Shown: positions 3,001-27,443, counted from the first letter of the stretch. The stretch: 37,727 nt of DNA from a virus (IMGVR_UViG_3300042539_000290:1-37727), one strand, 5' to 3'. Notes: generated by a model from the sequence alone, not told the origin. Numbers and translations are program-made.

Positions 3001-4647
3001 ATGGGATACAAGTCAATGCTTGCTAGTGTTCCTAGGGCTGCATCTGAATTGACATCAAACATGGCATACGTTGTTGCCGCTGGTTGGTCAGACTTTACAG
3101 AAGGTGTAAAGTATAGAGATGTTATCATGAACCCTTCGGCTGGAGATGTTATGATAAATCTAAATAGTTCTATGACTACTAGGGTTCTTGGTAAAGAAGG
3201 GCTGACTGGTAGAGCATTAGATAGCAACGTAACAAAAAGGGCAATAGGGACTAGTAGATCAAGAGCTAATTCTGCTGTAGTTGATAAGGCCATGCAGATA
3301 TACAACTACACATTGAATCCAGTTAGAGGAGGTATAGATGCATTAGCTACCAACCTAATTACTATATCAGATAAGGTAATGCTTCGTCCTTTATGGTTTG
3401 GTGCGTTTGCTAAAGAGTTCAAAAATATCACAGGTACTGAAGTTGACTTTGAAAAGATAGCAAACAACGACCAATCCTACATGAGGCAGTATCAAGCCCA
3501 ATTAGAGGAAGCCACAAAGTATGCTGATAATAAAACAGCTATGGCTGGTAGTACATCTAATCCATTCATGTCTTCATTGGGTAGGCAGATAAACGCAACC
3601 GATTCAAGCCTCAAGAAATTCTGGAAGACATTCGATAACTTCATGAACCAATTTGTTATCAATGAATTCTTTGTAGCAAGAAGAGCAGTTCATGACTTGG
3701 TTTTCCAAGGCACATTATCAAAAAAAGAAGCAGCCGCCTTATTGGCTGGAGTTGTTTTGAGAAGTAGCATATACTTTACAATGTCAAAGGTTATTAGCAA
3801 TGCTTTCTTTGGTATGCTTTTATCTGGATTAGGATTGAAGGAAGTAGATGATGAGGATGATGATGACGAGAAAACAATGGCACAAGCTTTTGGCCAAGGA
3901 TTTGCTTCAGCAGCTACAACCCTCATACTTGGACAAAACCTTGGTAACATATCAAGAAGCTTCGTTAACTATGGAGTAGAGAAAGTAAACGAGAACTACT
4001 TTGACTTCTTAAGAAGTGGGGAGTATAATGCTTACGAAGATGCTATTCAATACAATATAGTTCCTCCATCCGGGAAGACACCTCAGTTTAAAGATATCTT
4101 AATAGGATTGTCTGGTCCATATGCTCCTACTTTAAGAACATCTGAGTTTGCTTATAAGAAATTTACAGAAGCCACAAAGAAAGAAGAAGACGCAATAAAA
4201 AGGCAAGACAGAGAAATGTATTACAGATTACCAATAGAGGTTTTGGGTAGTACAGGTTTTGTACCGTTGTATAAAGACGTTAGAACTTTAACCAACAAGT
4301 GGATCTATCAGGAACTTGACAAAGAAAGGGCTGAGCAAAACAATAAGGACGAGTCAGAAAAAGAAACGCCATACGGCATGAACATGTCGGACCTAAAGAG
4401 GTATCATCCAGATGTATATGAAGAATACTATGGCAAGGGGACCGAGGCTGAAGCGCAAAGAAAACTAAAGAAAGAAAAAGCTGACGCAGAGAGGGCAATA
4501 AAAGATGCGCTATATGGATATGAACCATCTGTATCAAGAAGAAAAGACAGAGAGTCTGTTGGCTTTGGATCATCCAAGTTTGGCTCTAAGAGTAAATCTA
4601 AGAGAGGTGGATTTGGATCTTCTAGATTTGCTCTTAGAAGAAAGTAA
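1..4647 (+). CDS. Giant virion-associated protein, LPD38-like C-terminus (5' partial)
   Basis: The frame is open from base 1, so the gene starts upstream; 1548 residues are visible and the first in-window ATG (511) is not the true start. The visible N-terminus is a charged, Lys/Glu-rich coiled-coil region with a short PAKEEKA repeat (residues 65-91). A long helical middle follows. The C-terminal third has a hydrophobic stretch near residues 1240-1290, an acidic DEDDDDE patch, and segments like those of the large polyvalent protein-associated domain 38 family of phage polyproteins. The tail is basic and low complexity (GFGSSKFG, GGFGSSRFA). In related phages such proteins are carried inside the capsid or ejected with the DNA; that role is inferred here. 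It ends 5 bp from the stop of a convergent gene. Confidence 0.7.
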   Translation, partial: RERIANVRADKKLTQAQKDAKIKEIQDEYQATKKAVGATPAPIIKTKEQKAPDKEAKAAPKKPAPAKEEKAPAKEEKAPAKEEKAPAKEDKKLAKLKEEADRIQKDIDYNEFQIEDLEEEIRNTEYNRKTDTEEVKKEIAELKKKKPERIKKKKEELEKSGLSKAEVSEAMYEFKEQLKEEEEDLKAKIDQINEDSDDYRDGYKEEIKETKAELKKLNKQLEKKNAEIAAREEAPSYAIIDKLDNNTALEAALGYLEDLENDIDEFSKGNLSMGIAIPTLKLMIKATKALVKGGIKIQDALTQVAAQYNVTKQEFMDAIKALHAKTTALVDMKQEIKDEIQSFRQGKMDINQKRAALTKVINSMKQKGRINTNQAKALLSRISKVNLDNQAKVDEFINYVTNVFNNAEYDQYIAALNKRLPRAKNAVEKKIGTANALTIELRKLFSINPSKIPVSSLYQYGSLVDTFSKNSAILPIGDINTVTQMVTDILADVDAELSTIPGLTTKFYNTTSTVMNAQGSVDYAATLDAMLKNNEITENERDLMKKYKSEILPSPSTVKPTQQQTQQEKDDAIDEIINNVSITTVGLSSDLEKGLALSISRLIKNREILKRLSINELNNIIALADNINNGILPAIANTINNRLVNINNAIPVSKSVDNAKLTIKSKMLKNFMSTPKAIMESFKNNPLRLIDEMFGDFKTQTLYNGIFDRLAKMFNSYESRLGKINNKLDSALDGVVKSFKRSPNKIIESKMKMALYRIQREYEANPGDPRAKPALAYLDSILEAIPDGDIMYNERDGEILRGIREKYGVRDSNGKVVGLDLNSLEASFNQAENNALKVFDEINLSIEPEAVFTADVIRNNKIRLLNKYNHIVRVSSKGNPVDYVQEALDSFNQNNISTESGALQDRGTTVGPINLDIFSTVQSGAKSVLLDYYMTDAVRQARGTLKESMNISKEDGPLSADTSGIYSALDTAVEQVLKNVLSNSYAMDGMSDATLKFLQRMGYKSMLASVPRAASELTSNMAYVVAAGWSDFTEGVKYRDVIMNPSAGDVMINLNSSMTTRVLGKEGLTGRALDSNVTKRAIGTSRSRANSAVVDKAMQIYNYTLNPVRGGIDALATNLITISDKVMLRPLWFGAFAKEFKNITGTEVDFEKIANNDQSYMRQYQAQLEEATKYADNKTAMAGSTSNPFMSSLGRQINATDSSLKKFWKTFDNFMNQFVINEFFVARRAVHDLVFQGTLSKKEAAALLAGVVLRSSIYFTMSKVISNAFFGMLLSGLGLKEVDDEDDDDEKTMAQAFGQGFASAATTLILGQNLGNISRSFVNYGVEKVNENYFDFLRSGEYNAYEDAIQYNIVPPSGKTPQFKDILIGLSGPYAPTLRTSEFAYKKFTEATKKEEDAIKRQDREMYYRLPIEVLGSTGFVPLYKDVRTLTNKWIYQELDKERAEQNNKDESEKETPYGMNMSDLKRYHPDVYEEYYGKGTEAEAQRKLKKEKADAERAIKDALYGYEPSVSRRKDRESVGFGSSKFGSKSKSKRGGFGSSRFALRRK
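193..273 (+). repeat. 21-bp in-frame tandem repeat (PAKEEKA)
   Basis: Three full copies and one partial copy of a 21-bp unit lie head to tail inside the giant virion gene and encode PAKEEKA, ending in PAKEDK. The unit is a whole number of codons, so copy-number change keeps the frame. It forms a charged Pro-containing linker between coiled-coil segments. Confidence 0.9.
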
Positions 4648-16886: not shown

Positions 16887-17615
16887 TTATGAGTGATTAA
16901 ATATATATACTGATTTCTTTCCTTTGCCTTTTGTCCCGGAACATAGACTGCATTTAGCACAGTCTGATTTGTATCCGTTCTCCTCGGATGCAGGGCATCC
17001 AATCATGTGAGTTCTGCGTTGCTTGTCGATGTCGTCCATGAATACTCTCCATCCCATAGTCTCTGCTTGAAGACTCTCATCTAACCCTTGCGTAGATGCC
17101 ATGAAGAATTCTCTGTAGTCATAGTAGGGCACACGCCTCCATTGGTGGGTGTACCCCGTCCATGACTTTGCAACAAAACACACACGCTCAACGAGGTCGA
17201 TAGGTAGAAGCACAGGCTCACCATATGTACCGAACCGTACATATTTGTCCATGCACATATTGACTATGGCTCGTTGAATATCTTCATTGAAGACCGGGAT
17301 GTTGTCCCAATCTCCGTAAATTCTTCCAATGCTACGCAGTTGCGATAGCATGCCACTATATTGGTCTCTCTTGTGGGTGTAGCAACCCTTTAAACTCGCA
17401 CCATTACCCATGGCATACACACAATCCATACACACATCAGAGTCAAGGCCAAAGAACTTGTTCATCGTTGTCTTGCTTTGTCCTTCCTCATACTGAGCCC
17501 TGCTGTAATGGTAGGTCTGAATCATTTTCAAATCGCTTGGAGCAATCTTGTCGTTTAGTGTGGTGCCCAATCGTATCACGTTCAGTACACCGTTGTAAAT
17601 AAATTCGTAACGCAT
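16887..17615 (-). CDS. DUF7227-like Cys-rich phage protein, 242 aa
   Basis: It matches a phage family of unknown function by its ordered motifs: CMDCVYAMG, GCYTHK, RFGTYGEP, TGYTHQWRR, MASTQG, GWRVF, CPASEE and CAKCSLC. The four Cys clusters could hold zinc or an iron-sulfur centre; neither is proven. It is the first gene of an operon. A TATCTTTG promoter lies at 17694-17725, and the leader carries two adjacent hairpins and a CAA-rich unstructured stretch with no Shine-Dalgarno before the ATG. Confidence 0.8.
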   Translation of the reverse strand: MRYEFIYNGVLNVIRLGTTLNDKIAPSDLKMIQTYHYSRAQYEEGQSKTTMNKFFGLDSDVCMDCVYAMGNGASLKGCYTHKRDQYSGMLSQLRSIGRIYGDWDNIPVFNEDIQRAIVNMCMDKYVRFGTYGEPVLLPIDLVERVCFVAKSWTGYTHQWRRVPYYDYREFFMASTQGLDESLQAETMGWRVFMDDIDKQRRTHMIGCPASEENGYKSDCAKCSLCSGTKGKGKKSVYIFNHS

Positions 17616-17638: not shown

Positions 17639-17676
17639 GTCTCTTCGAAGAGACAGCGTGTCGTTGAAGACACGCT
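17639..17676 (-). repeat. Paired leader hairpins (palindrome family member)
   Basis: GTCTCTTCGAAGAGAC (17639-17654) is a perfect palindrome, 18 bp with its flanks. A second inverted repeat, AGCGTGTC/GACACGCT with a GTTGAA loop, follows at 17655-17676. Both lie in the leader of the 242-aa gene, 23 nt or more before its ATG. Confidence 0.85.
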
Positions 17677-17693
17677 ACCTCTCAATAGTTTTA

Positions 17694-17725
17694 CAAAGAT
17701 ACTACAAAAGATTGACAAAAGCAAA
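17694..17725 (-). promoter_or_regulatory. Bacteroidota-type promoter, near-duplicate of 22814-22845
   Basis: TTTG, 20 bp, TATCTTTG on the minus strand. About 30 bp here match the promoter at 22814-22845 almost base for base (ACAAAGATACTACAAAA and TTGACAAAAGCAAA on the plus strand). Confidence 0.75.
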
Positions 17726-17728
17726 TCT

Positions 17729-18106
17729 TTAGAAGTTCTCGTCCTCCCAATCGTCTTCGTCATCATAGTCGTCTTCGTCATAGAAGAATCCCTGATCTCT
17801 GCATGACTTTGGTTCTTCGTTTCTCCATGTCCACTTTGGTGACTCAGTTAAGTTCGGTGTCAGATATGGTTGAGCAGGTATGCTATATGCAATACTGATG
17901 CCTTCCCCTCTTGTCTCCTTGCCATTCATCTTTGCAAGCAGCTCATAGAAATCCATGCCACCGAATACACCGTACCCATCGTACTCTGACTCAGTCCATA
18001 CATTGCCATTGTTGTCATGCATATGCACCTTGAATGGCTTTTTTCTACTGTGCACATTACAGATAGACCTACCTGTGTCCTGTGTTTTCCAACTAAAGAA
18101 TCCCAT
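17729..18106 (-). CDS. Conserved phage protein with acidic tail, 125 aa
   Basis: It starts MGFFSWKTQDTGRSI and continues with YGVFGGMDFYELLAKMNG and TRGEGI, an order I recognise from conserved phage proteins of unknown function. The last 20 residues are almost all Asp, Glu and Tyr. Such tails can mimic nucleic acid, but that is only a suggestion. It is the last gene of the leftward 22.7-17.7 kb operon. Confidence 0.8.
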   Translation of the reverse strand: MGFFSWKTQDTGRSICNVHSRKKPFKVHMHDNNGNVWTESEYDGYGVFGGMDFYELLAKMNGKETRGEGISIAYSIPAQPYLTPNLTESPKWTWRNEEPKSCRDQGFFYDEDDYDDEDDWEDENF

Positions 18107-18147
18107 AATTATTTTAATTCATTTATTTTTTGAATGATTGATTCGTT
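18105..18147. repeat. 43-bp exact direct repeat, copy 1
   Basis: This sequence is identical to 18365-18407, 260 bp away. Read on the minus strand it would encode NESIIQKINELK and a stop, the C-terminus of the neighbouring 102-aa protein, but here it lies after the stop of the 68-aa gene. It therefore looks like a duplicated gene end. Confidence 0.9.
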
Positions 18148-18352
18148 AACCTTTGGAGTCGTGAAAAACAACTTGGTGCGACCTAATTAGTTCGGGTATA
18201 CAATACGCGTCCCAATCACCGCTCTCTATTTTGTTGTCAGCATACTCAATTGCCTCGTCAATTGGCATGTTTACATAGGGGCAGTTTGCATAGATTTCGT
18301 TTGGAATTCCACTAACGAATATGTCGTTGTAGTAGATTGTTACTAGTTGCAT
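18146..18352 (-). CDS. Small acidic hypothetical protein, 68 aa
   Basis: An acidic protein (MQLVTIYYNDIFVSGIP... to FHDSKG) of unknown family. It sits between the two copies of the 43-bp repeat, so it may be a gene cassette inserted into the end of the 102-aa gene. Its stop lies at the inner edge of copy 1. Confidence 0.7.
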   Translation of the reverse strand: MQLVTIYYNDIFVSGIPNEIYANCPYVNMPIDEAIEYADNKIESGDWDAYCIPELIRSHQVVFHDSKG

Positions 18353-18364
18353 ATGTTTAAATTT

Positions 18365-18407
18365 ATAATTATTTTAATTCATTTATTTTTTGAATGATTG
18401 ATTCGTT
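18365..18407. repeat. 43-bp exact direct repeat, copy 2
   Basis: The partner of 18105-18147. This copy encodes the in-frame C-terminus of the 102-aa protein, so it is probably the original. Confidence 0.9.
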
Positions 18408-18677
18408 GTGCTCATCAAAGAAGTTGGTCATCTTTTCATGGCTGCCATCGAAATCTTCTGGCGACCAAATCAAACATGAATAGCCGACCGCTTGATTGTC
18501 TTTTGCGACCATGTCATTGATGTCTTCATTGATTTCCGTCTCCGTGACGATGCATCTTTGTTTCTTTGCTTCTACTATGAGTGCAGGTAAGCACTCAACA
18601 TAGAGCCTGTCGTCTTGAAAGGTAGCCACCAACTCTGAGTGGCTACCCGTTAATGATTGAAAATATACTTTGATCAT
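18369..18677 (-). CDS. Hypothetical phage protein, 102 aa
   Basis: An acidic alpha/beta protein (MIKVYFQSLTGSHSELV) of unknown family. It overlaps its upstream neighbour by 4 bp. Its last 12 codons are repeated 260 bp downstream as part of a direct repeat. Confidence 0.75.
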   Translation of the reverse strand: MIKVYFQSLTGSHSELVATFQDDRLYVECLPALIVEAKKQRCIVTETEINEDINDMVAKDNQAVGYSCLIWSPEDFDGSHEKMTNFFDEHNESIIQKINELK

Positions 18678-19039
18678 AATTCTGCTGTAAATTCACACGC
18701 TCCGTTTTCTTCTAATGACTCTGCGATTTTGTAACCCAATAGTAAATCTGCATACTCGCTCAAGTCTTGATCGCTAATGTTAATTTCTTTTAGTTCTTCG
18801 TCTTGATATGAGATTTTACCTTCTTGATTGAAGAATGCATCTAGCCTTGCTTTCTTGTCTCCGAGTTTTGTTTCTATCTCGGAAATTTCCTGCCTTACTG
18901 TTGGTAAATCTTCTATCTCAAAGTAGTACTCTAAATAACAAGGAGGATTCCCTGTCTTGCCGAACCTATCGGCTGCGTCTGATGATTGGACACCGAACCA
19001 AAACTTGCCTTCGATGTCTCCTGAATAATAGCGTCCCAT
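18674..19039 (-). CDS. Conserved phage protein, MGRYYSGDIEGKFWF type, 121 aa
   Basis: The opening MGRYYSGDIEGKFWFGVQSS followed by DAADRFG and CYLEYYFE is a conserved phage family of unknown function. A coiled-coil segment (RQEISEIETKLGDKKARL) follows, then an acidic C-terminus. It overlaps the next gene by 4 bp. Confidence 0.8.
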   Translation of the reverse strand: MGRYYSGDIEGKFWFGVQSSDAADRFGKTGNPPCYLEYYFEIEDLPTVRQEISEIETKLGDKKARLDAFFNQEGKISYQDEELKEINISDQDLSEYADLLLGYKIAESLEENGACEFTAEL

Positions 19040-19046
19040 AATTTTA

Positions 19047-19571
19047 TCAATTTATTTTGTGATACAAGTGTGTGATGTAGGATTTAAATTTGTCTGTGTT
19101 GATGAACGAATCAAACTTACGCATCTGATCAGAGTCACTTGTGAATCCATAAAATACATCCGCTGTTGGCTCATACACTTTTAACCCATTTTTACTGTGG
19201 TATTTCAAGAAGACTTTCACATATATAAAGAACCAATCGTCCCCTGATTTGGGATGGTCAATCTTCACGCTCGCTGAACAATACTGTGAGTCAGGTGAAT
19301 ATCTAAGCTTATCCCTGCTGTCCTCTACTTCGATGCCTAACTTTTTGCACTCCGTCTTTAGATATGCCATGTTCTTGTCATGTTGAGTCTTCAGTTCATT
19401 GAACAGGGCATGACTCTTCAATGCGATTTCATCGAACTCTTTACGAGTCTGTGCAATGTCGTTGAGTAATACTTCAGCAAATGATGTTGGCTCTTCCGTG
19501 CCATTCATAGTCAAGAATTCATTCTTGATTTGCTCGATTAGTTTTTCTTGATTTTCTGTTAGTGTTTTCAT
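19047..19571 (-). CDS. Hypothetical coiled-coil protein, 174 aa
   Basis: The first 90 residues are a long charged helix (EKLIEQIKNEFL, ARTRKEF-like heptads); the second half is mixed with several aromatic residues. It ends HLYHKIN. No family is recognised. Confidence 0.75.
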   Translation of the reverse strand: MKTLTENQEKLIEQIKNEFLTMNGTEEPTSFAEVLLNDIAQTRKEFDEIALKSHALFNELKTQHDKNMAYLKTECKKLGIEVEDSRDKLRYSPDSQYCSASVKIDHPKSGDDWFFIYVKVFLKYHSKNGLKVYEPTADVFYGFTSDSDQMRKFDSFINTDKFKSYITHLYHKIN

Positions 19572-19575
19572 GGTT

Positions 19576-19758
19576 TTAAATTGTTACTATGGTTGGTTCT
19601 TTTTTACTGTTGGTTTCATACACATAGAAGTGAAGTCCCGGAAATAATAATGACAGCCTGTCAACTTCTTTCTCGGCATCAGCACGCTGAGTGTAGTACC
19701 CACGACTTGCAATTCTGTCGTGGGTATTCTCTTCGATTACATGATAATAGATTTTCAT
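19576..19758 (-). CDS. Small hypothetical protein, 60 aa
   Basis: A short alpha/beta protein (MKIYYHVIEENTHDRIASRG) with no recognised family. It overlaps the 214-aa gene's stop by 4 bp. Confidence 0.7.
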   Translation of the reverse strand: MKIYYHVIEENTHDRIASRGYYTQRADAEKEVDRLSLLFPGLHFYVYETNSKKEPTIVTI

Positions 19759-20399
19759 TTCATTAGTTTTAATATTTCTTCACATGTATACGTCTTGTCA
19801 TGGTCGTACTCATCCACCACGGTGATGTAATCGTTTTCCAATTCCTCTTTTATTTCACCCTGACACATATACTCATACAGGTACTCATGTATCATGCTGT
19901 CTTCGCTACACTTGAATAGTTTGGCATCGGTGTACCCACCACGAACATCGCATCCATTGTGGATTTGGAGCAGCAAATACTCATCCCCATTTACATCTAT
20001 CCAACCTCCTTGGAGTACCTGAGATAGGTCTGAGTCTCCATTATAAGTGTTGAATACATGCCTAACCTTCAATTTCAAGCCGGCCTTCCAGCACAGCCAT
20101 CTCCATTGATTGTCGCTGACTCCAAACACCTCCTCGGCATCCCAATCAGGGCATGGCATAGCATTGAATTCCTCGCACAATTCGTCCTGCTCCAACTGTG
20201 ATAGATAATGGAACACAGATACGGTTCTGCATATGTAGTGTCCATCCCATATGTACAGCTGTTCGGGTTCATTCTCGAAGTCCTCGATGCTGCGTTTTTG
20301 ATTTCTCTCCCAATGCCTGCCATAGGCACCGCCTGAGTCAAGCATGTGTGCTCCTGTACTTTCAGTGAGCATGCTGTAAATTAATTCTTTCGTGTTCAT
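19755..20399 (-). CDS. Conserved phage protein, LDSGGAYGRHW type, 214 aa
   Basis: The N-terminus MLTESTGAHMLDSGGAYGRHWERNQ is a conserved motif of a widespread phage family of unknown function. Several Cys and Trp residues follow (CRTVSVFHYL, WRWLCWKAGL), and a Gly-rich centre (QGGWIDVNGDEY). Its leader contains the palindrome at 20423-20438. Confidence 0.8.
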   Translation of the reverse strand: MNTKELIYSMLTESTGAHMLDSGGAYGRHWERNQKRSIEDFENEPEQLYIWDGHYICRTVSVFHYLSQLEQDELCEEFNAMPCPDWDAEEVFGVSDNQWRWLCWKAGLKLKVRHVFNTYNGDSDLSQVLQGGWIDVNGDEYLLLQIHNGCDVRGGYTDAKLFKCSEDSMIHEYLYEYMCQGEIKEELENDYITVVDEYDHDKTYTCEEILKLMK

Positions 20400-20415
20400 T
20401 TTGTTGCGTGTTGTT

Positions 20416-20700
20416 TTAATTTGTCTCTTCGAAGAGACTTACTTTCTCTCTTGGTTTGCCATCGATATCCGTGAGCAGGTCATACATCATGTTGATGTAG
20501 TTGAAGTAGAAGTTTGGATGAAACAATGCAAACTTGCCTTGCTTCTCAAGTTCATCATTCTCCTTGACAATTGCAGGAAGATGCTTTTTGATTTCCTTAC
20601 AGTCAGCCTCAAGCCTTTGGATTAAGTAGAGCGAATACATTGGATGCATACCCTCGATGCCATCCACTAATGTTTTGATTGGTGATTTCTTGTTAGTCAT
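20416..20700 (-). CDS. Hypothetical helical protein, 94 aa
   Basis: A helical, Tyr- and Lys-rich protein with no recognised family. Its last residues SLFEETN are encoded by the palindrome that also lies 23 nt before the next gene's ATG, so coding and leader signal overlap. Confidence 0.7.
   Translation of the reverse strand: MTNKKSPIKTLVDGIEGMHPMYSLYLIQRLEADCKEIKKHLPAIVKENDELEKQGKFALFHPNFYFNYINMMYDLLTDIDGKPREKVSLFEETN
20423..20438 (-). repeat. GTCTCTTCGAAGAGAC palindrome
   Basis: A perfect 16-bp palindrome in the coding end of the 94-aa gene, 23 nt before the ATG at 20399. Same family as 17639, 22015, 22527, 22751 and 24051. Confidence 0.9.
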
Positions 20701-20869
20701 TTTGTAAATTGATTAATAGGTTTTCGATTTTAGATAGTTGTTGCATGTGCCACATGATTGTAGCCCTGTCATCTGAGTTGTTGTACATTACTTCAAGTTT
20801 GTACATTGCATCTTGCAGAGCATCAATCATGTCCTGCAATTCTGAATTGGTTAAGTCTTGTGTGTTCAT
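20693..20869 (-). CDS. Small helical protein, 58 aa
   Basis: The start at 20869 (MNTQDLTNSELQDMI) is chosen over an ORF from 20899 because a strong Shine-Dalgarno (GGAGGTAAGATAATG) precedes it and the ATG overlaps the preceding stop as TAATG. Helical, mildly acidic, no recognised family. Confidence 0.75.
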   Translation of the reverse strand: MNTQDLTNSELQDMIDALQDAMYKLEVMYNNSDDRATIMWHMQQLSKIENLLINLQND

Positions 20870-21171
20870 TATCTTACCTCCTCCGTATTGTAGCCCCACT
20901 CTTCAAACTTGTCCAAGATCTGCTCAGGAATTGAGAACACTCCGTCATAGTCTACGATATAGCGTAGAGTTTCGTCCATGAATACCTTGCCCTCGGCATA
21001 CCATTCCTCGCCTCCACTCTCGATGTCATAGAGTTCAAACCATCCCGACTCACCACTCTCGTGGATGCCGATTGTTAATTCAACTGCGATGTCATTCTGC
21101 TGTTTGATAGTGCCGAATGAGTTTCCTAACGACAGGCTTACATAGTCTGTCCATGTGATTTCTTTTTTCAT
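20869..21171 (-). CDS. Acidic hypothetical protein, 100 aa
   Basis: An acidic, beta-rich protein (MKKEITWTDYVSLSLG, then GESGWFELYDIESGGEEWYAEG). No family is recognised. Its stop overlaps the next gene's ATG. Confidence 0.75.
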   Translation of the reverse strand: MKKEITWTDYVSLSLGNSFGTIKQQNDIAVELTIGIHESGESGWFELYDIESGGEEWYAEGKVFMDETLRYIVDYDGVFSIPEQILDKFEEWGYNTEEVR

Positions 21172-21749
21172 AATTGATTTATTAATTGGTTTAATTGTTC
21201 TTCTGTTAACTTGTCTTTCAGTTCTGCTTTCAGTTCGTCCATTAGTCCACTCGTGTCATGGTCACCTATGAATCCCCATTGTTGGTTGCACTCAATCTCT
21301 TCCGTGTCTTCAAAGACACGAAATCCGAACACATTCCCATCCATCCAATTCTTATATTCCTCAAACTCTGATTCAACAACCTGCCTTGCCTTCTCATCCC
21401 AATCTGTACCCAATGCAAAGTTTGAGAACACGTCACTCTCGCTCAGACAAACGAACCCTACCATACCCGAATCCCACTTGTCTTTGAATGGACGAAGGGA
21501 TAGGGTTGCCGCACCATGGTCGAGCATATACACTGTGAATACCCAATTGTAATCCTTGCATAGTTCAACGCTTACTTCCTCCCACGAGTCATAGTCATCG
21601 AACTGAAAGTCGATTTCATTGGGAAGGTCATACCTATTGTGATCCATCACAAACTTGGTCATTGGACTCCACAGGCGTGGACTCTCTGAATCTGAGTCGT
21701 AGTATATCTCTACCGAGATATTACCTACTGATAATTTTCTTTCTATCAT
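21168..21749 (-). CDS. Conserved acidic phage protein, 193 aa
   Basis: An acidic, Trp-rich protein with KDKWDSGMVGFVCLSES and WGFIGDHDTSGLMDEL, a pattern I recall from conserved phage proteins of unknown function. It is 193 aa. A hairpin, CGTGTCTT/AAGACACG, lies inside it at 21303-21320 encoding part of FRVFEDTEE. Confidence 0.75.
   Translation of the reverse strand: MIERKLSVGNISVEIYYDSDSESPRLWSPMTKFVMDHNRYDLPNEIDFQFDDYDSWEEVSVELCKDYNWVFTVYMLDHGAATLSLRPFKDKWDSGMVGFVCLSESDVFSNFALGTDWDEKARQVVESEFEEYKNWMDGNVFGFRVFEDTEEIECNQQWGFIGDHDTSGLMDELKAELKDKLTEEQLNQLINQL
21303..21320. repeat. Hairpin inside coding sequence
   Basis: CGTGTCTT and AAGACACG with a 2-nt loop. It resembles the palindrome family in shape and in encoding a FEDTEE/LFEET-like peptide, but sits in the middle of a gene, so I treat it as a weaker member. 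Confidence 0.6.
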
Positions 21750-21988
21750 ATAGTATAAACTAGTTTATCTTGTCCACCGTTTTGTACCCATAATGCTCCA
21801 CCATTATTGCCCTCATCATCCATTTGAGGGACAATCATTGAGCCATCATTGAGCGTTATAATCAATGGTCGTTTGCTCCACATCAGAGCATCCGCTTCTT
21901 CTTGCGTCATGTATCTGACACTTGTAATTCTCTTGGCAACCAAGAACATAAACTCGTTTGCCATTCTTCTATCTTCCATACTTTTCAT
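21746..21988 (-). CDS. Hypothetical phage protein, 80 aa
   Basis: The start at 21988 (MKSMEDRRMANEFMF) is chosen; the longer form would begin at a TTG inside the palindrome. A central DGSMIVPQMDDEGNNGGAL segment resembles small phage proteins of unknown function. The palindrome at 22015-22030 lies 26 nt before the ATG. Confidence 0.75.
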   Translation of the reverse strand: MKSMEDRRMANEFMFLVAKRITSVRYMTQEEADALMWSKRPLIITLNDGSMIVPQMDDEGNNGGALWVQNGGQDKLVYTI

Positions 21989-22014
21989 GGTTTTATTTTT
22001 GTTTTTATTTTTTT

Positions 22015-22030
22015 GTCTCTTCAAAGAGAC
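22015..22030 (-). repeat. GTCTCTTCAAAGAGAC leader hairpin
   Basis: A 7-bp stem copy of the palindrome family in the short gap before the 80-aa gene. It is followed on the minus strand by an A-rich, T-poor stretch and the ATG. Confidence 0.85.
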
Positions 22031-22034
22031 GATT

Positions 22035-22508
22035 TTACATTAGTCCCCTATCTGCAAGTGATGTATAACTGTGCTTGGTCAGTATGATATGGTCGAGCAT
22101 AGAGATACCCATAATTTTGCCCGATTCTTTCAGGTCATTTGTCAATCTTATATCTTCATCGCTCGGCTCTGTCGCTCCGCTTGGATGGTTATGACAGACC
22201 ATAAACGAGGACGCATTCGATAGAATAAGCATCTGCATTATTTGTCTGATGTCCACCACACAGGCATACAGTCCACCCGATGAAACTTGAGTGTATGCAA
22301 TGGGTCGATTGCTTCTCGATAACGCACACACCCAGAACTCTTCATGATGCTCCACCACATCATCGGTGATCATGTGCCTGAACATTTGTGCTGAATGAGA
22401 TGAGTTCCGTACATTCAAGTCCATTGATGGAATCAGTAACGCTTCATCGGTCTTGTACGATATCTTCGCCTCGCCAAGATACCATTTTGGTTTAGTTGAT
22501 TTACTCAT
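22035..22508 (-). CDS. RadC-like JAB/MPN domain protein
   Basis: At 157 aa it contains the RadC signature HNHPSG (about 106-111) and EPSDEDIRLT, with an upstream EEFWVCALSRSNRPI strand and a downstream GISMLDHIILT. These are the metal-binding residues of the JAB/MPN fold. RadC-like proteins are common in phages and mobile elements; their reaction is still debated. The N-terminal helix-hairpin region of cellular RadC is missing. The palindrome at 22527-22542 lies 18 nt before its ATG. Confidence 0.85.
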   Translation of the reverse strand: MSKSTKPKWYLGEAKISYKTDEALLIPSMDLNVRNSSHSAQMFRHMITDDVVEHHEEFWVCALSRSNRPIAYTQVSSGGLYACVVDIRQIMQMLILSNASSFMVCHNHPSGATEPSDEDIRLTNDLKESGKIMGISMLDHIILTKHSYTSLADRGLM

Positions 22509-22719
22509 GGTTTTCTACTAATTTTTGTCTCTTCGAAGAGACGATTTGTTTGATTTGGTTTACATTCTCATTCACTCTGTAGAATCCGAATGGTGTTTGT
22601 AACTCTGTGCATTCATCATGCTCGACAGCATTATAAATGTACTTTGCATTCAATAAGATTGAACGTGTGTACACGAATCCATCATGGTCATGTACAATTT
22701 CATTTAGTGTAATTAACAT
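22501..22719 (-). CDS. Hypothetical phage protein, 72 aa, first of operon
   Basis: I choose the start at 22719 (MLITLNEIVHDHDGF), which leaves a leader of about 90 nt with a palindrome in it. Two in-frame ATGs at 22806 and 22803 (MMARLN) lie only 7-10 nt after a TACCTTTG box and would be leaderless starts, so a 101-aa form is possible. No family is recognised. It overlaps RadC-like by 8 bp. Confidence 0.65.
   Translation of the reverse strand: MLITLNEIVHDHDGFVYTRSILLNAKYIYNAVEHDECTELQTPFGFYRVNENVNQIKQIVSSKRQKLVENHE
22527..22542 (-). repeat. GTCTCTTCGAAGAGAC palindrome
   Basis: A perfect palindrome inside the 3' end of the 72-aa gene (encoding VSSKR), 18 nt before the RadC-like ATG. Confidence 0.9.
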
Positions 22720-22750
22720 ATCGTTTGTTTTAAATTGGTTTCTATTTTTT

Positions 22751-22766
22751 GTCTCTTCAAAGAGAC
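22751..22766 (-). repeat. GTCTCTTCAAAGAGAC leader hairpin
   Basis: A palindrome-family copy in the leader of the operon's first gene, 31 nt before the ATG at 22719. Confidence 0.85.
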
Positions 22767-22813
22767 ATTTTACTTTGATAGTTGTAGCATTGAGCCTTGC
22801 CATCATTGTAATA

Positions 22814-22845
22814 CAAAGGTACTACAAAACTTTGACAAAAGCAAA
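22814..22845 (-). promoter_or_regulatory. Bacteroidota-type promoter for the 22.7-17.7 kb operon
   Basis: TTTG, 20 bp, TACCTTTG on the minus strand. Its about 30 bp match the promoter at 17694-17725 with few differences, which suggests the two operons are co-regulated or arose by duplication. Confidence 0.75.
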
Positions 22846-23146
22846 CTATTGAAGGGACTGTCCCAATGCAGGACAAACCAAACGAGCCTTGCCATTTTCT
22901 ATGCGTTTCATGGATGTATTTTTTCGGTGAGCCTTGCCATTTCCACCATAGTAAAAACTATTTCCACCACGAAAAAATCCGTGTCTTTAAAGACATGAAC
23001 CAATGGAGGCAACCAATGGAGGCAACCAATGGAGGCTTAAATAGAGACGTTTTAAGGCCTTGAAAATGTACTTGTGTAGGTATACACCACAAGAGATAAA
23101 ATAGGGCTTTAAACGGGCTAAAATAGGGCTAAAATAGAAATAATAA
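22846..23146. other. Gene-less repeat-rich spacer
   Basis: About 300 bp with no convincing gene. It contains two further copies of GAGCCTTGCCAT (22884-22895, 22929-22940), also present at 22792-22803 over the MMARLN start; a TGTCTTTAAAGACA palindrome (22982-22995); three 13-bp tandem repeats; and AAATAGGGCT-type repeats near 23100. It reads like DNA rearranged by duplication. Confidence 0.7.
22998..23036. repeat. 13-bp tandem repeat, three copies
   Basis: AACCAATGGAGGC is repeated three times head to tail without mismatch. It lies in the gene-less spacer. Confidence 0.95.
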
Positions 23147-23165
23147 AGCCCGTATTGAACGGGCT
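23147..23165 (-). terminator. Distal copy of the tandem terminator hairpin
   Basis: AGCCCGT/ACGGGCT stem with an ATTGA loop, followed on the minus strand by TTATTATTTC. The same 19 bp occur at 23196-23214. Confidence 0.65.
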
Positions 23166-23187
23166 AAATTAGACGGGTTAATAGGGC

Positions 23188-23214
23188 AAAAAAAAAGCCC
23201 GTATTGAACGGGCT
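23188..23214 (-). terminator. Intrinsic terminator after the 249-aa gene
   Basis: The stem AGCCCGT/ACGGGCT is followed on the minus strand by nine T residues. It lies 23 bp after the stop at 23237. Confidence 0.9.
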
Positions 23215-23236
23215 AATTTGTCGGGCTTGTGGGCTT

Positions 23237-23986
23237 TTAAGCCTTTACAAGTTCGGGCTTTTGAACGGGCTTTTTGGCTTGTAATTTTGTGGCGTTTCTC
23301 TTGGCTACAACCTTGGCTTGTTTTGTTGCGGCTTCAATCTTGAACGTGCTATTTATGTGGGCTTGTAATTCACTAACGACGGCACGTAATTCAAGGGCAG
23401 TATAACCATTGTTTTCGCTTGTGCCGTCTGAGTAATAAGTGAATGAATTTTTACCTAAGGTGAACTTTGCTACAATTGATTTTGTCACTTGTTTGACGGG
23501 CTTGTTAGCCTTAAGGCTTTCTTTTGTAGGTATTAAAGCCCCTTTGTGACTATCAAAATCGTTAACCCAACTTTGTAGAGCCTCCATTGAATAAACGGGT
23601 TTGTCCCCTTCTTTTTCGGCTTTATCGCAATTGCTCAAATAAAGTGCTTTCTTGCTTTGCTCAACTTTGCCAATTGACAATAACTTGTAATACCATTTGA
23701 CTTGAAACCCGTAGACCAATTCACAAATCTCTGCTTTTGTCGGTTTCTCAATTTTCAAGTCTTTTGCCTTGTTTTTTACCGACTCGAAGAAAGTAGTGAA
23801 ATGCTCTTCGGTTAACTTAATCTCATGCGCCAATTGGAGCGAAATTGTAAACCTTGTTTTTTCGGCTTTCTCAATTGATTGGTTCAATTCTTTAATCTTT
23901 GCAACGTTCAAAGCCTTTGTTTGTTGTCCTTTGTGTGCGGTTAACATGCCGTTAACTAATGCACTAATGTTTTGTGTGTGTATCAT
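23237..23986 (-). CDS. Basic protein of unknown function, 249 aa
   Basis: The start at 23986 (MIHTQNISALVNGML) is chosen because a TATCTTTG box lies 8 nt before it; upstream in-frame sequence is low-complexity DNA. The N-terminal half is helical (KIKELNQSIEKAEKTRF), the C-terminal third is strongly basic (TKQAKVVAKRNATKLQAKKP). That suits nucleic-acid binding but no family is recognised. It is a monocistronic unit with tandem terminators. Confidence 0.8.
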   Translation of the reverse strand: MIHTQNISALVNGMLTAHKGQQTKALNVAKIKELNQSIEKAEKTRFTISLQLAHEIKLTEEHFTTFFESVKNKAKDLKIEKPTKAEICELVYGFQVKWYYKLLSIGKVEQSKKALYLSNCDKAEKEGDKPVYSMEALQSWVNDFDSHKGALIPTKESLKANKPVKQVTKSIVAKFTLGKNSFTYYSDGTSENNGYTALELRAVVSELQAHINSTFKIEAATKQAKVVAKRNATKLQAKKPVQKPELVKA

Positions 23987-23994
23987 AACGTCAA

Positions 23995-24002
23995 CAAAGA
24001 TA
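23995..24002 (-). promoter_or_regulatory. TATCTTTG -7 box for the 249-aa gene
   Basis: A perfect TAnnTTTG element 8 nt before the ATG at 23986. A GTTG lies 19 bp upstream in the -33 position. Confidence 0.55.
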
Positions 24003-24050
24003 GTATAAAACTTTAATAAAACAACTATAAAAGAAAATATTTTTAAAATT

Positions 24051-24066
24051 GTCTCTTCGAAGAGAC
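24051..24066. repeat. GTCTCTTCGAAGAGAC palindrome, intergenic
   Basis: A perfect palindrome, 20 bp with its flanks (24049-24068), upstream of the promoter of the 249-aa gene, unlike the other copies, which follow their promoters. Confidence 0.9.
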
Positions 24067-24240
24067 AAAGGTATGCGGACACGGACACGGGCAAAGGGAA
24101 ACGGGCAAGGCAAACAAAGGAAGGACGGGCAAAGGGGCGTATTAAAGGACGTGAACGGATAACAAGGCAAGGCAACAAAGGACGGCAAGGACAAAACGCC
24201 AAAAAATGGACGGGAAACGGGCAAAAGTTAGACCCCCCCC
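24067..24240. other. T-poor, G-run-rich spacer between divergent genes
   Basis: This DNA on the + strand is almost free of T and full of ACGGGCAA and AAGG motifs. Five G3-G4 runs lie in 24089-24137, so G-quadruplex or R-loop formation is possible. It ends in a C8 run that pairs with GGGGGTC at 24265-24271. A small TGGGG/CCCCA hairpin follows at 24286-24300. I see no gene here. Confidence 0.7.
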
Positions 24241-24730: not shown

Positions 24731-24916
24731 TTATACTATTAACATTAATTATGTTATAAATATGTTAAAATAGAATATTATAATATATTGAATATCAATA
24801 TATTAAAAAGAGAAATGTTAAATATGTTAAAAATAAAAATGAACTGTAGTCAGAAATAAAATACGCATATAAAGAAATATATATATATAATAGGGAGGAT
24901 TAGAAAACAACATTTT
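24731..24916. other. AT-rich origin-like block, copy 2
   Basis: This region of the 458-bp gap before groEL holds four TATGTTA/ATGTTAA-type repeats, an 11-bp-stem inverted repeat TAATATATTGA/TCAATATATTA (24781-24805), and the conserved block AAAAATGAACTGTAGT ... AATAGGGAGGATTAGAAAA shared with 11381-11463 in the same orientation. Origin function is inferred from the repeats and AT richness; a transcriptional control region for groEL is the alternative. Confidence 0.5.
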
Positions 24917-24921
24917 GCCAT

Positions 24922-24955
24922 TACCCCCTATCCGGGTATCCCTATCCGGGGGGTA
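24922..24955. repeat. GC-rich inverted and direct repeats before groEL
   Basis: TACCCCC and GGGGGTA can pair around a loop that contains two TATCCGGG direct repeats. The element lies directly before the groEL -33 box, where an operator would be expected. Confidence 0.65.
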
Positions 24956-24986
24956 TTTGGTATTTCATTACATCGATGTATATTTG
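24956..24986 (+). promoter_or_regulatory. groEL-groES promoter, Bacteroidota type
   Basis: TTTG, exactly 19 bp, TATATTTG: a full match to the Bacteroidota consensus. The ATG of groEL lies 22 nt further on. Confidence 0.8.
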
Positions 24987-25007
24987 CTCTGCAATCAAAT
25001 CAAATTT

Positions 25008-26621
25008 ATGAATAGTAGTATGGGATATTCCCCAAAGGATTTAGACTTTGACGAGCGTGCACGCAAGAAGCTTGTGGATGGCATAGTCAAGTTATCGAAA
25101 GCAGTTAAGAGCACGTTGGGTCCAAATGGAAACACAGTGCTTATTGAATCACCCAATCACACGCATGGGATTACAGTCACCAAGGATGGTGTCACAGTGG
25201 CCAAGTCGATTGACTTGATAGACCCCATTGAGAACCTTGCGGTGAAGATTATGAAGCAGGCGGCAGATAGAACTGCTAGTGATGCTGGTGATGGTACCAC
25301 TACGAGCATTGTCCTTACGGAGGCGTTGGTGCTTGAGGGGATGAAATACATCACGAGCAGGACGACCAACCGAACGGTGTTGCTTAGGCATTTGGTGGAA
25401 TTGAGCAATCAGGTGGTGGACAAGTTGAAGAAGCGCAGCAAGAAGCTGACGAGTTCGATGTTGCTCGATGTGGCAACTATATCGGCAAATAACGATAAAT
25501 CAATCGGGAAGATTATTGCTGAGGTTTATGCTGACGTTGGGCGTAATGGCATCGTGACGGTTGAGAGAAGCCAGAGTACTGAGACTTATGCTGAGACCAC
25601 ACTGGGTCTGAAAATTGACAGGGGGTATTTGAGTCCGCTGTTCATCAATGACCAGAAGAAGGACGAGTGTGTATACGAGGATGTGATGGTGTTGGTGGCT
25701 GACATGGAGATAAGCAATATCTTGCAGCTTGAGTTGGCGCTGAAGCCAATCATTCACGAGAATAAAAAGATTTTATTGATCGCTCCATGTAGCAATAACG
25801 TGGTGAACACGCTAGCTGCGAACGTGATGAAGAACAATCTGAAGATTGTGGCCATCCAACCGCCTAGCTTTGGCTACAAACAGCACGAGCTGATGCAAGA
25901 TATCGCACTGTCTGTTGGGGCAACGTACTTTTCCGAGAAGACAGGGGACGATTTGAGTCTGATCAATTACTCAGATTTGGGCCATGCAGCGAAGATTATC
26001 GTGTCAGCTGATAAAACTATCATCCTTAAGAGCGATCTGCGCTCAGATGGGCTGAGAATCGATGAGAGGGTCAAACAATTGTGGGACGCACATGCCCAAG
26101 CTACCAAAAAAGCGGACAAGGACTTCCTGTTGGAGCGCATTGCATCGCTAACCGGTGGCATTGGAGTGATCTATGTGGGTGGAAATACGGACTTGGAGCA
26201 GAAAGAACTGTACGACAGGGTCGATGATGCTGTCTGTGCGGTGAGGTCAGCTCTTGAAGAGGGAATTTTACCCGGTGCTGGCAAGGCATTGGCTGAAGAA
26301 TCAGTGGACTTGGTGCCAAACATAGACGAATCGGACGAATACAACGCAGCTCTTAGCATACTTAAGCAGGCATTGACTGCTCCGGCTATCCAAATCCTTG
26401 ACAATGCAGGGGTAGACGTGGAGAAAATCTACGGAGAGGTGGTCGAGCGTGGCCATGGCTACGATGTGAAGAGTGGACAGATGGGTGACCTGATAAAAAT
26501 GGGCGTAATTGACCCGTTGAAGGTGACACGCAGCGCACTTCAGAACGCAGTCAGTGTAGCTGTGACCATATTGTCAACCAACGCCATCGTCACTATGGCA
26601 AGATCCTACACAACCGAGTAA
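25008..26621 (+). CDS. groEL: Phage chaperonin GroEL (Hsp60)
   Basis: It encodes 537 aa from the ATG at 25008 (MNSSMGYSPKDLDFD); the ATG at 25020 is an alternative. Group I chaperonin motifs are intact: VKSTLGPNGN, TKDGVTVAKSI, the ATP-binding GDGTTT (about 94-99), IDRGYLSP at the apical domain edge, YDRVDDAVCAVRSALEEG with the Asp that catalyses ATP hydrolysis, GAG, and VTRSALQNAVSVA near the end. It would form a cage that folds phage proteins with GroES. It is diverged from cellular GroEL and lacks the C-terminal Gly-Gly-Met tail, ending ARSYTTE. groES follows 9 bp later. Confidence 0.95.
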   Translation: MNSSMGYSPKDLDFDERARKKLVDGIVKLSKAVKSTLGPNGNTVLIESPNHTHGITVTKDGVTVAKSIDLIDPIENLAVKIMKQAADRTASDAGDGTTTSIVLTEALVLEGMKYITSRTTNRTVLLRHLVELSNQVVDKLKKRSKKLTSSMLLDVATISANNDKSIGKIIAEVYADVGRNGIVTVERSQSTETYAETTLGLKIDRGYLSPLFINDQKKDECVYEDVMVLVADMEISNILQLELALKPIIHENKKILLIAPCSNNVVNTLAANVMKNNLKIVAIQPPSFGYKQHELMQDIALSVGATYFSEKTGDDLSLINYSDLGHAAKIIVSADKTIILKSDLRSDGLRIDERVKQLWDAHAQATKKADKDFLLERIASLTGGIGVIYVGGNTDLEQKELYDRVDDAVCAVRSALEEGILPGAGKALAEESVDLVPNIDESDEYNAALSILKQALTAPAIQILDNAGVDVEKIYGEVVERGHGYDVKSGQMGDLIKMGVIDPLKVTRSALQNAVSVAVTILSTNAIVTMARSYTTE

Positions 26622-26630
26622 TATCAGAGT

Positions 26631-26888
26631 ATGCAAGCAATAGGTAAGTACATAGTGGTGGTGAATATCACAGAGGAGATCCGCACAGAGGGTGGGCTAC
26701 TCCTTTCATCGCAAGATTCCGATGAGTTCAGATACAAAAAAGCCAAGGTGATAAACCCCGGCTCTGATGTGTCTGTGATAAAGGCTGATGACTTGGTCTA
26801 TTACGACAAGGGACACAGCTTTACCATGGTAATCAATAACATTCAGTATACAATCATTCAGGAGCGAGACGTTGTGGTGGTTCTTTGA
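26631..26888 (+). CDS. groES: Phage co-chaperonin GroES
   Basis: At 85 aa it fits GroES: an N-terminal strand IGKYIVVVNI, a mobile loop EEIRTEGGLLLSSQDSDEF whose GGLLL corresponds to the hydrophobic GGIVL anchor that docks onto GroEL, KAKVINPGS, and DDLVYYDKG before a terminal RDVVVVL strand. The usual roof-loop residues are shortened. It starts 9 bp after groEL and shares its transcript. Its last 31 bp overlap the end of a convergent gene. Confidence 0.85.
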   Translation: MQAIGKYIVVVNITEEIRTEGGLLLSSQDSDEFRYKKAKVINPGSDVSVIKADDLVYYDKGHSFTMVINNIQYTIIQERDVVVVL

Positions 26889-27319
26889 TCCTCCAATCTT
26901 TTGCGCTCTTTCTCCTGCTCGATTTCCTCCATCATCTCGATGAGGAACCGAGTGTATCTACGCTCCATATAGGGAAGGTCAGCTAAGTTCTGGCCTTTTT
27001 CTATGTATGGGCCTGCCTCACGGTTGAGGATGTTGTACATATGGGTGATGACTCTCTTGCCTTTCGGACTGATCTCGTAAATCTTTCTGTCTTTCTTCGT
27101 TGGGCTGTCGAACGCACCGAGCCATCCGTTGGTGCACATCTTTGTGATGCGGTCTTTGTCCCAAGAGAAAAGTTTCTCTAACTTGTCAAGTTTCCTTGTG
27201 CTGAAGTACCCTAGGTCGTAGATGTAAAGCAAGATATCTAACTCTTCCTGAGACAGACCATACTTCATCTTGAAGTAGTAGCGTACTGCCTTCCAATACT
27301 TTAGGTAATTAGTTTTCAT
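26858..27319 (-). CDS. Winged-helix (MarR-like) DNA-binding protein
   Basis: The start at 27319 (MKTNYLKYWKAVRYYF) is preferred; the longer ORF adds a hydrophobic stretch from intergenic DNA. Residues 20-100 follow a winged-helix pattern: GLSQEELDILLYIYDLGYF, a recognition helix region KLFSWDKDRITKM, and a wing (FDSPTKKDRKIYEISPKGKRV). The C-terminus is a long charged helix. It may regulate phage genes. It is convergent with groES and overlaps it by 31 bp. Confidence 0.7.
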   Translation of the reverse strand: MKTNYLKYWKAVRYYFKMKYGLSQEELDILLYIYDLGYFSTRKLDKLEKLFSWDKDRITKMCTNGWLGAFDSPTKKDRKIYEISPKGKRVITHMYNILNREAGPYIEKGQNLADLPYMERRYTRFLIEMMEEIEQEKERKRLEDQRTTTTSRS

Positions 27320-27334
27320 TTTAATAGATTTAAT

Positions 27335-27342
27335 TATATTTG
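27335..27342 (+). promoter_or_regulatory. TATATTTG -7 box for the small basic-protein operon
   Basis: A perfect TAnnTTTG element 20 nt before the ATG at 27363. A TATTTTTG reading leftward at 27347-27354 could serve the convergent winged-helix gene, so this is a possible divergent promoter pair. Confidence 0.5.
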
Positions 27343-27362
27343 TATGCAAAAATATAAAACAA

Positions 27363-27443
27363 ATGCCAAGTTGTAACCAAAACCCAATCACCCAGAGAGT
27401 AAAATCTGGTAGTTCAAAAGTTAAAACTTCTAAAAAGAAATAA
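27363..27443 (+). CDS. Tiny basic peptide, 26 aa
   Basis: It encodes MPSCNQNPITQRVKSGSSKV and ends KTSKKK. It lies downstream of a -7 box and 2 bp before the next gene, and shares the Lys-rich ending of its neighbours. Coding is likely but unproven at this length. Confidence 0.5.
   Translation: MPSCNQNPITQRVKSGSSKVKTSKKK

What the first reader, a model, noticed from the sequence alone, without database searches (positions are those of the whole stretch)
17639..24066. Family of GTCTCTTC(G/A)AAGAGAC hairpins placed before start codons
Six near-identical palindromes lie at 17639, 20423, 22015, 22527, 22751 and 24051. Five end 18-31 nt before an ATG on the minus strand, followed by A-rich leader with no Shine-Dalgarno, regardless of whether the hairpin is intergenic or inside the upstream gene (where it encodes LFEET or VSSKR). 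Conserved spacing to the ATG suggests an RNA or DNA signal: translation control, an RNase processing or stability site, or an operator. It is confined to the 17.6-24.1 kb accessory region. The 24051 copy lies upstream of its promoter and is an exception.
Basis: seen in the sequence. Interest (0 to 1): 0.75.

Follow-up and report, generated by a model that had tools for sequence, protein, structure and literature searches.

The report
Repeated leader hairpins in Bacteroidota phages
A virus of Bacteroidota bacteria carries the same small RNA hairpin just ahead of several genes, and in its relatives that hairpin sits right next to self-cutting RNAs and tRNA-like elements, suggesting these viruses cut and cap long messages into per-gene units.

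Summary
Six copies of GTCTCTTC[G/A]AAGAGAC lie at the stated places and nowhere else in the window. Five end 18, 23, 23, 26 and 31 nt before an ATG (about 3e-7 by chance under my gene calls). The family is widespread. MW202828.1 (primase 77% identical) has 14 identical copies of GTGTCGTTAACGACAC, and other relatives have 6-14 copies of GTGTCT-N4-AGACAC per 45-65 kb record.

Relatives show that the element acts as RNA. One orthologous leader in 14 phages keeps a bulged hairpin with compensatory changes at 8 of 10 pairs (0/500 shuffles). Of 160 distinct core hairpins, 25 are followed directly by type III hammerhead ribozymes, 11 by tRNA-like elements and 46 by a start codon within 50 nt. Inside the helicase gene, synonymous positions are frozen at the stem.

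Each genome uses one version throughout (GTGTC or GTCTC), which implies a sequence-specific partner. Best reading: a boundary module that caps and insulates the mRNA of individual cistrons, paired in sister phages with self-cleaving or tRNA-like cutters. The window itself has no such cutter, so cleavage there is inferred. DNA-operator and antitermination readings remain open.

The parts
17639..17654 (-). core hairpin GTCTCTTCGAAGAGAC, 23 nt before the ATG at 17615
   Evidence: orthologous leaders in L126, L224, L154 also carry two tandem hairpins
17655..17676 (-). second, upstream tandem hairpin AGCGTGTCTTCAACGACACGCT
17694..17725 (-). predicted Bacteroidota promoter TTTG-N-TATCTTTG ahead of the tandem hairpins
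   Evidence: consensus only
16887..17615 (-). 242-aa conserved phage protein of unknown function (phrog_2554), gene downstream of the 17639 hairpin
20423..20438 (-). core hairpin overlapping the 3' end of ORF 20416-20700, 23 nt before the ATG at 20399
21304..21319 (-). variant GTGTCTTTGAAGACAC inside ORF 21168-21749 (encodes RVFEDT); L126 and L224 carry a similar site in an apparently homologous context
22015..22030 (-). core hairpin GTCTCTTTGAAGAGAC, 4 nt after the RadC-like stop and 26 nt before the ATG at 21988
22527..22542 (-). core hairpin overlapping the end of ORF 22501-22719, 18 nt before the RadC-like ATG at 22508
22035..22508 (-). RadC-like JAB-domain protein
   Evidence: PF04002, 2.9e-36
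22751..22766 (-). core hairpin GTCTCTTTGAAGAGAC in the predicted 5' UTR, 31 nt before the ATG at 22719
22814..22845 (-). predicted promoter TTTG-N-TACCTTTG
   Evidence: consensus only
24051..24066 (-). core hairpin directly abutting the -7-like box TACCTTTG (24073-24066), 64 nt before the ATG at 23986, with a second predicted promoter (24024-23995) between

Best explanation
The palindrome is an RNA hairpin that marks cistron boundaries in the long early transcripts of a group of Bacteroidota-infecting, roughly 60-kb tailed phages. In the mRNA it forms a 6-bp stem with a 4-nt loop and leaves an unstructured A-rich leader of 18-31 nt free for initiation without Shine-Dalgarno. Most likely it caps and insulates the ends of mRNA units made from the polycistronic transcript, protecting ends or defining cleavage points. 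In sister phages the same slot is followed at once by a hammerhead ribozyme, a tRNA or a tRNA-like minihelix, which would cut directly 3' of the hairpin; the upstream mRNA would then end in the hairpin and the downstream mRNA would start just before its leader. Shown from sequence: the conserved RNA structure, the placement, and the coupling to ribozymes and tRNA-like elements in relatives. Inferred: that the window's own copies mark cleavage or protection sites, and that a sequence-specific factor binds the core, which would explain why each genome uses one core version throughout.
For: Orthologous leader in 14 phages (gene MCVIIIK...): 97.1% of cells paired, compensatory change at 8 of 10 pairs, 0/500 shuffles. 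The outer stem is bulged, so it is not a symmetric DNA dyad. L256, L226 and L276 keep the hairpin with an altered core there, so structure itself matters at that leader. 160 distinct core hairpins: 25 followed by a hammerhead core (random 0.6%), 11 by a tRNA-like T-loop (random 0.2%), 46 by an ATG within 50 nt outside an ORF (random 12.6%). Hammerheads match Rfam RF00008 just below its gathering score (40.9-47.5 bits against 48.5; E 2.2e-7 to 1.9e-5). All 33 from the retrieved loci lie on the gene strand. A bona fide tRNA starts 5 nt after the L256 hairpin. L248, which uses the window's GTCTC core, has a hammerhead preceded by a GTCTCC...AGAGAC hairpin and a GTCTC core directly followed by a tRNA-like element. 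The leader of the window's 242-aa gene has two tandem hairpins in the window, L126, L224 and L154, the second with unrelated sequence in several of them. MW202828: 9 of 14 copies lie at gene junctions, several exactly 3 nt after a stop.
Against: The window, MW202828 and L126 contain no hammerhead or tRNA, so cutting at the window's copies is by analogy. About a quarter of copies in relatives lie inside ORFs (helicase, a terminase-region gene), where a boundary role does not fit. Single-base core variants do not favour G.U over A.C (13 against 9). No transcript data exist, and promoters and gene starts are predictions.
Confidence: 0.55

Rival explanations
1. The hairpin is the binding site of a phage RNA-binding protein that modifies transcription (boxB/nut-like processive antitermination) or otherwise marks early mRNA; repeated copies keep the long operon transcribed.
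For: Copies lie just after predicted promoters and are repeated through the operon and inside long genes. The core changes in concert genome by genome: six records have 66 GTGTC and no GTCTC sites, while G006 has six GTCTC sites, two hybrids and no GTGTC site. Helicase codons are frozen at stem positions.
Against: No boxA-like conserved partner was noticed beside the hairpin (not searched for systematically) and no antiterminator was identified. It does not explain the hammerhead and tRNA adjacency or the replacement of the core by unrelated hairpins in leaders and ribozyme slots.
Confidence: 0.2
2. It is a DNA operator or stoperator-like site bound by a dimeric phage regulator; the RNA hairpin is a by-product of DNA symmetry.
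For: Perfect palindromes including the centre in MW202828 (14 identical copies, 5 inside CDS). Concerted core change. Distribution like the Cluster O 17-bp palindromes (PMC4351075). A winged-helix-like regulator gene lies at 26858-27391 (phrog_12817, weak).
Against: Loops vary and are often not palindromic. Outer stems are bulged and covary at an orthologous leader, and extended stems with G.U on the gene strand are common beside ribozymes. Placement directly 5' of hammerheads and tRNAs has no reason under this view.
Confidence: 0.13
3. It controls translation directly: a structural insulator that keeps the A-rich leader unpaired or provides a standby site, with no role in processing.
For: Spacing of 16-39 nt to ATG is just outside a ribosome footprint; leaders are A-rich and unpaired in folds.
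Against: Copies inside genes, far from starts, and copies placed 5' of a ribozyme or tRNA are not explained.
Confidence: 0.1

Closest known systems
Hammerhead ribozyme clusters in prophage transcripts (Perreault et al. 2011, PMC3088659)
   Same: Intercistronic RNA elements proposed to cut long phage transcripts into single-gene or operon-length mRNAs; sister phages of the window carry type III hammerheads at the same kind of junction.
   Different: The window has only the hairpin. A recurrent sequence-conserved hairpin directly 5' of the ribozyme was not among the passages read.
17-bp palindromic repeats of Cluster O mycobacteriophages (PMC4351075)
   Same: Many identical palindromes in one phage genome, many in short intergenic gaps, about a third inside genes, function unknown.
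   Different: Those were interpreted as likely dimer-binding DNA sites and not closely linked to starts; here outer stems covary and ribozymes or tRNAs follow.
Start-Associated Sequences (SAS/ESAS) of Cluster K mycobacteriophages (PMC3203893)
   Same: Repeats tied to start codons across many genes, some with inverted repeats, unknown function.
   Different: SAS is an asymmetric 13-mer; here the element is a hairpin 16-39 nt upstream in a host without Shine-Dalgarno.
HDV-like theta ribozymes next to phage tRNAs (PMC10879173)
   Same: Small self-cleaving RNAs combined with tRNAs in phage genomes of the gut.
   Different: Different ribozyme class; no hairpin module is described in the abstract read.

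Membership tests
Type III hammerhead ribozyme | CUGANGA / GAAA core with stems I-III in the window | tested here: not met
   No core in the window by pattern or Rfam at E<=1
Type III hammerhead ribozyme (relatives) | Core plus three stems, GUH cleavage site, Rfam similarity | tested here: met
   33 found on the gene strand; RF00008 at E 1.9e-5 to 2.2e-7, just below the gathering score; activity not testable here
Intrinsic terminator | Hairpin followed by a U-run on the transcribed strand | tested here: not met
   On the gene strand A-rich leaders follow each of the five start-linked window hairpins
Cluster A stoperator | Asymmetric 13-mer oriented with transcription, bound by an immunity repressor | tested here: not met
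   Sites are symmetric; the asymmetry criterion is from PMC4351075
Start-Associated Sequence (SAS) | 13-bp GGGATAGGAGCCC-like sequence next to the start codon | tested here: not met
   Different sequence and spacing
Cluster O-type palindromic repeat | Many copies of one palindrome, intergenic plus some in genes, one genome-specific consensus | tested here: met
   similarity of distribution only, no sequence relation
boxB/nut antitermination site | Hairpin bound by an N-like protein with a boxA element | not tested
   No systematic boxA or N-like protein search was made

The most novel reading that the evidence does not exclude
A group of Bacteroidota phages uses a modular RNA boundary code. 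A hairpin core that co-evolves with a genome-specific partner marks cistron ends and plugs into interchangeable cutters (hammerhead ribozyme, tRNA, tRNA-like minihelix, or an unknown nuclease, as in the window), dividing long transcripts into capped single-gene mRNAs suited to initiation without Shine-Dalgarno.
Probability: 0.4. Interest if true: 0.82.

Novelty: new variant of a known kind. Interest (0 to 1): 0.66.

Why it matters
How phages of Bacteroidota organise mRNA for hosts that initiate without Shine-Dalgarno is little known. A repeated hairpin that pairs with hammerheads and tRNA-like elements at gene boundaries gives a concrete, testable rule for mRNA segmentation, and its concerted sequence change offers a handle to find a new sequence-specific RNA (or DNA) binding factor. 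The hammerheads fall below Rfam's gathering score, so standard annotation would miss them. A hammerhead in the cultured Flavobacterium phage elemoE makes ribozyme cleavage in this wider phage group testable.

Tried and rejected
Intrinsic terminator: no U-run follows on the gene strand. Rfam families in the window: none credible. Virion-RNA-polymerase hairpin promoter (N4/crAss-like): considered because MW202828 encodes a 3859-aa protein in its virion gene region; dropped without a direct test because many copies lie inside genes and predicted host-type promoters precede several hairpins, and the literature search gave nothing relevant. G.U against A.C in single-base core variants: not decisive (13 against 9). 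Outer-stem G.U against A.C by longest extension: 23 against 15, not significant overall; the extensions of 4 or more pairs lean to G.U but the sequences are related. blastn of the region against named phages: no match. GTGTCGTTAACGACAC in viral contigs: 8 stretches, mostly in unrelated coding contexts. A first hammerhead pattern was one base too short and found nothing; corrected. Exact-core ribozyme hits L024 and L111 with the window's own 16-mer resemble hammerheads with a U.U first pair in stem II and failed my strict filter, so they are not counted. The totals (107 hammerheads, 81 with core hairpin) are biased by having searched for that combination; the less biased figures are.

Full report
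Observation. The six palindromes are exact and unique to the 17.6-24.1 kb region of the window. Under my gene calls, five end 18-31 nt before a minus-strand ATG, with a chance of about 3e-7. Two more members exist: an imperfect tandem partner at 17655-17676 and a variant at 21304 inside a gene. Four TTTG-N-TAnnTTTG promoter-like sites lie on the minus strand of the region; they and the A-rich leaders point to a Bacteroidota host. The 24051 copy starts at the last base of one of these boxes. In several relatives the first copy of the early region also follows a C/T-rich stretch ending in TTT, so 24051 may be a regular position rather than an exception; this is weak.

Relatives. The closest named genome is MW202828.1 (Podoviridae sp. 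ctfjg026, 60.85 kb, primase 77% identical). It has 14 identical GTGTCGTTAACGACAC sites, all within 43.7-55.2 kb; nine sit at gene junctions, most of them 16-39 nt before a start and often 3 nt after a stop, and five lie inside genes. L126 has a 15-mer GTGTCGTTACGACAC family and GTGTCTTCGAAGACAC. Retrieving contigs by the primase gave many more genomes with GTGTCT-N4-AGACAC, and a few with GTCTC like the window.

RNA, not just DNA symmetry. For one orthologous gene (MCVIIIK...) 14 leaders were aligned. A bulged two-part stem is kept in 97.1% of cells, with changes on both sides at 8 of 10 pairs and no shuffle out of 500 reaching this. The two outer arms are at unequal distances from the centre, so a symmetric DNA dyad does not explain them. 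In L256, L226 and L276 the core sequence is altered but the hairpin remains. The leader of the window's own 242-aa gene shows the same at a smaller scale: two tandem hairpins in the window, L126, L224 and L154, with the start-proximal one built from unrelated sequence in several of them. The window is not part of the 14-leader set because no copy of that gene was found in it.

Coupling to RNA cutters. A search of the retrieved loci found 33 hammerhead-like ribozymes, all on the gene strand and most directly 3' of a GC-rich hairpin. Rfam RF00008 recognises them just below its gathering score, which is why the standard scan missed them. Of 160 distinct core hairpins, 25 precede a hammerhead core, 11 a tRNA-like T-loop, and 46 a start codon within 50 nt; random positions give 0.6%, 0.2% and 12.6%. 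A bona fide tRNA begins 5 nt after a hairpin in L256. Other hairpins of unrelated sequence can occupy the slot before the ribozyme. L248, whose genome uses the window's GTCTC version, has a hammerhead preceded by a closely related hairpin and a core hairpin followed by a tRNA-like element. Ninety-two stretches in viral contigs match core hairpin plus CTGANGA within 48 nt; one genome contig with two such cassettes is binned as Cytophagales. The cultured Flavobacterium phage elemoE has a hammerhead just upstream of its first early gene, although it lacks the repeated core.

A second layer: sequence. Seven relatives have 8-14 copies per record, dense in the early region and sparse elsewhere. Six of them use GTGTC only (66 sites); G006 uses GTCTC (six sites, plus two hybrids). 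Late copies include an interior site in a terminase-region gene (gene identity is my guess), whose codons read KCLQRH or ECLQRH in GTGTC genomes and ESLQRD in G006. At the helicase interior site, synonymous codons are nearly fixed exactly at stem positions while loop and flanking codons vary (26 of 38 perfect stems). This argues for a sequence-specific partner, or for mutual pairing of copies, and is not explained by structure alone. It is the part for which a DNA-binding or antitermination reading remains possible.

Conclusion. The element is best seen as an RNA boundary hairpin of early, and some late, phage mRNAs. Its presence as conserved RNA structure is well supported. The processing/stability role is the best-supported mechanism, but for the window it rests on analogy with sister phages.

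Noticed in passing
L314 28912-28968 (MT497078.1, Flavobacterium phage elemoE): A type III hammerhead (RF00008, E 2.1e-6, below the gathering score) lies about 20 nt upstream of the first early gene of a cultured phage.
   Followed up: partly
L155 1946-5430, L162 9043-12305, L165 9072-11590: Another hairpin family, GAGCGCC-N4-GGCGCTC followed by GGTTATCTGTTAA, precedes many consecutive starts; its flanking pairs covary by eye.
   Followed up: partly
L258 5378, L259 3095, L254 2507, L248 1615, L285 831: Mini tRNA-like elements (acceptor stem plus T-arm, lacking an anticodon arm) directly 3' of the core hairpin.
   Followed up: partly
window 26858-27391 (-): Winged-helix-like regulator (phrog_12817, weak) next to groES/groEL-like genes at 24915-26888; MW202828 has a gene annotated 'repressor' beside its chaperonin genes. 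Homology of the two was not tested. A candidate trans-acting factor.
   Followed up: no
window 22998-23240: Short direct repeats (CCAATGGAGGCAA) and repeated AGCCCGTATTGAACGGGCT inverted repeats in a non-coding stretch upstream of the early gene block.
   Followed up: no
window 24070-24240: Strongly purine-rich + strand, low-complexity stretch beside the first hairpin; a similar stretch occurs in L126 near 3800-4000.
   Followed up: no
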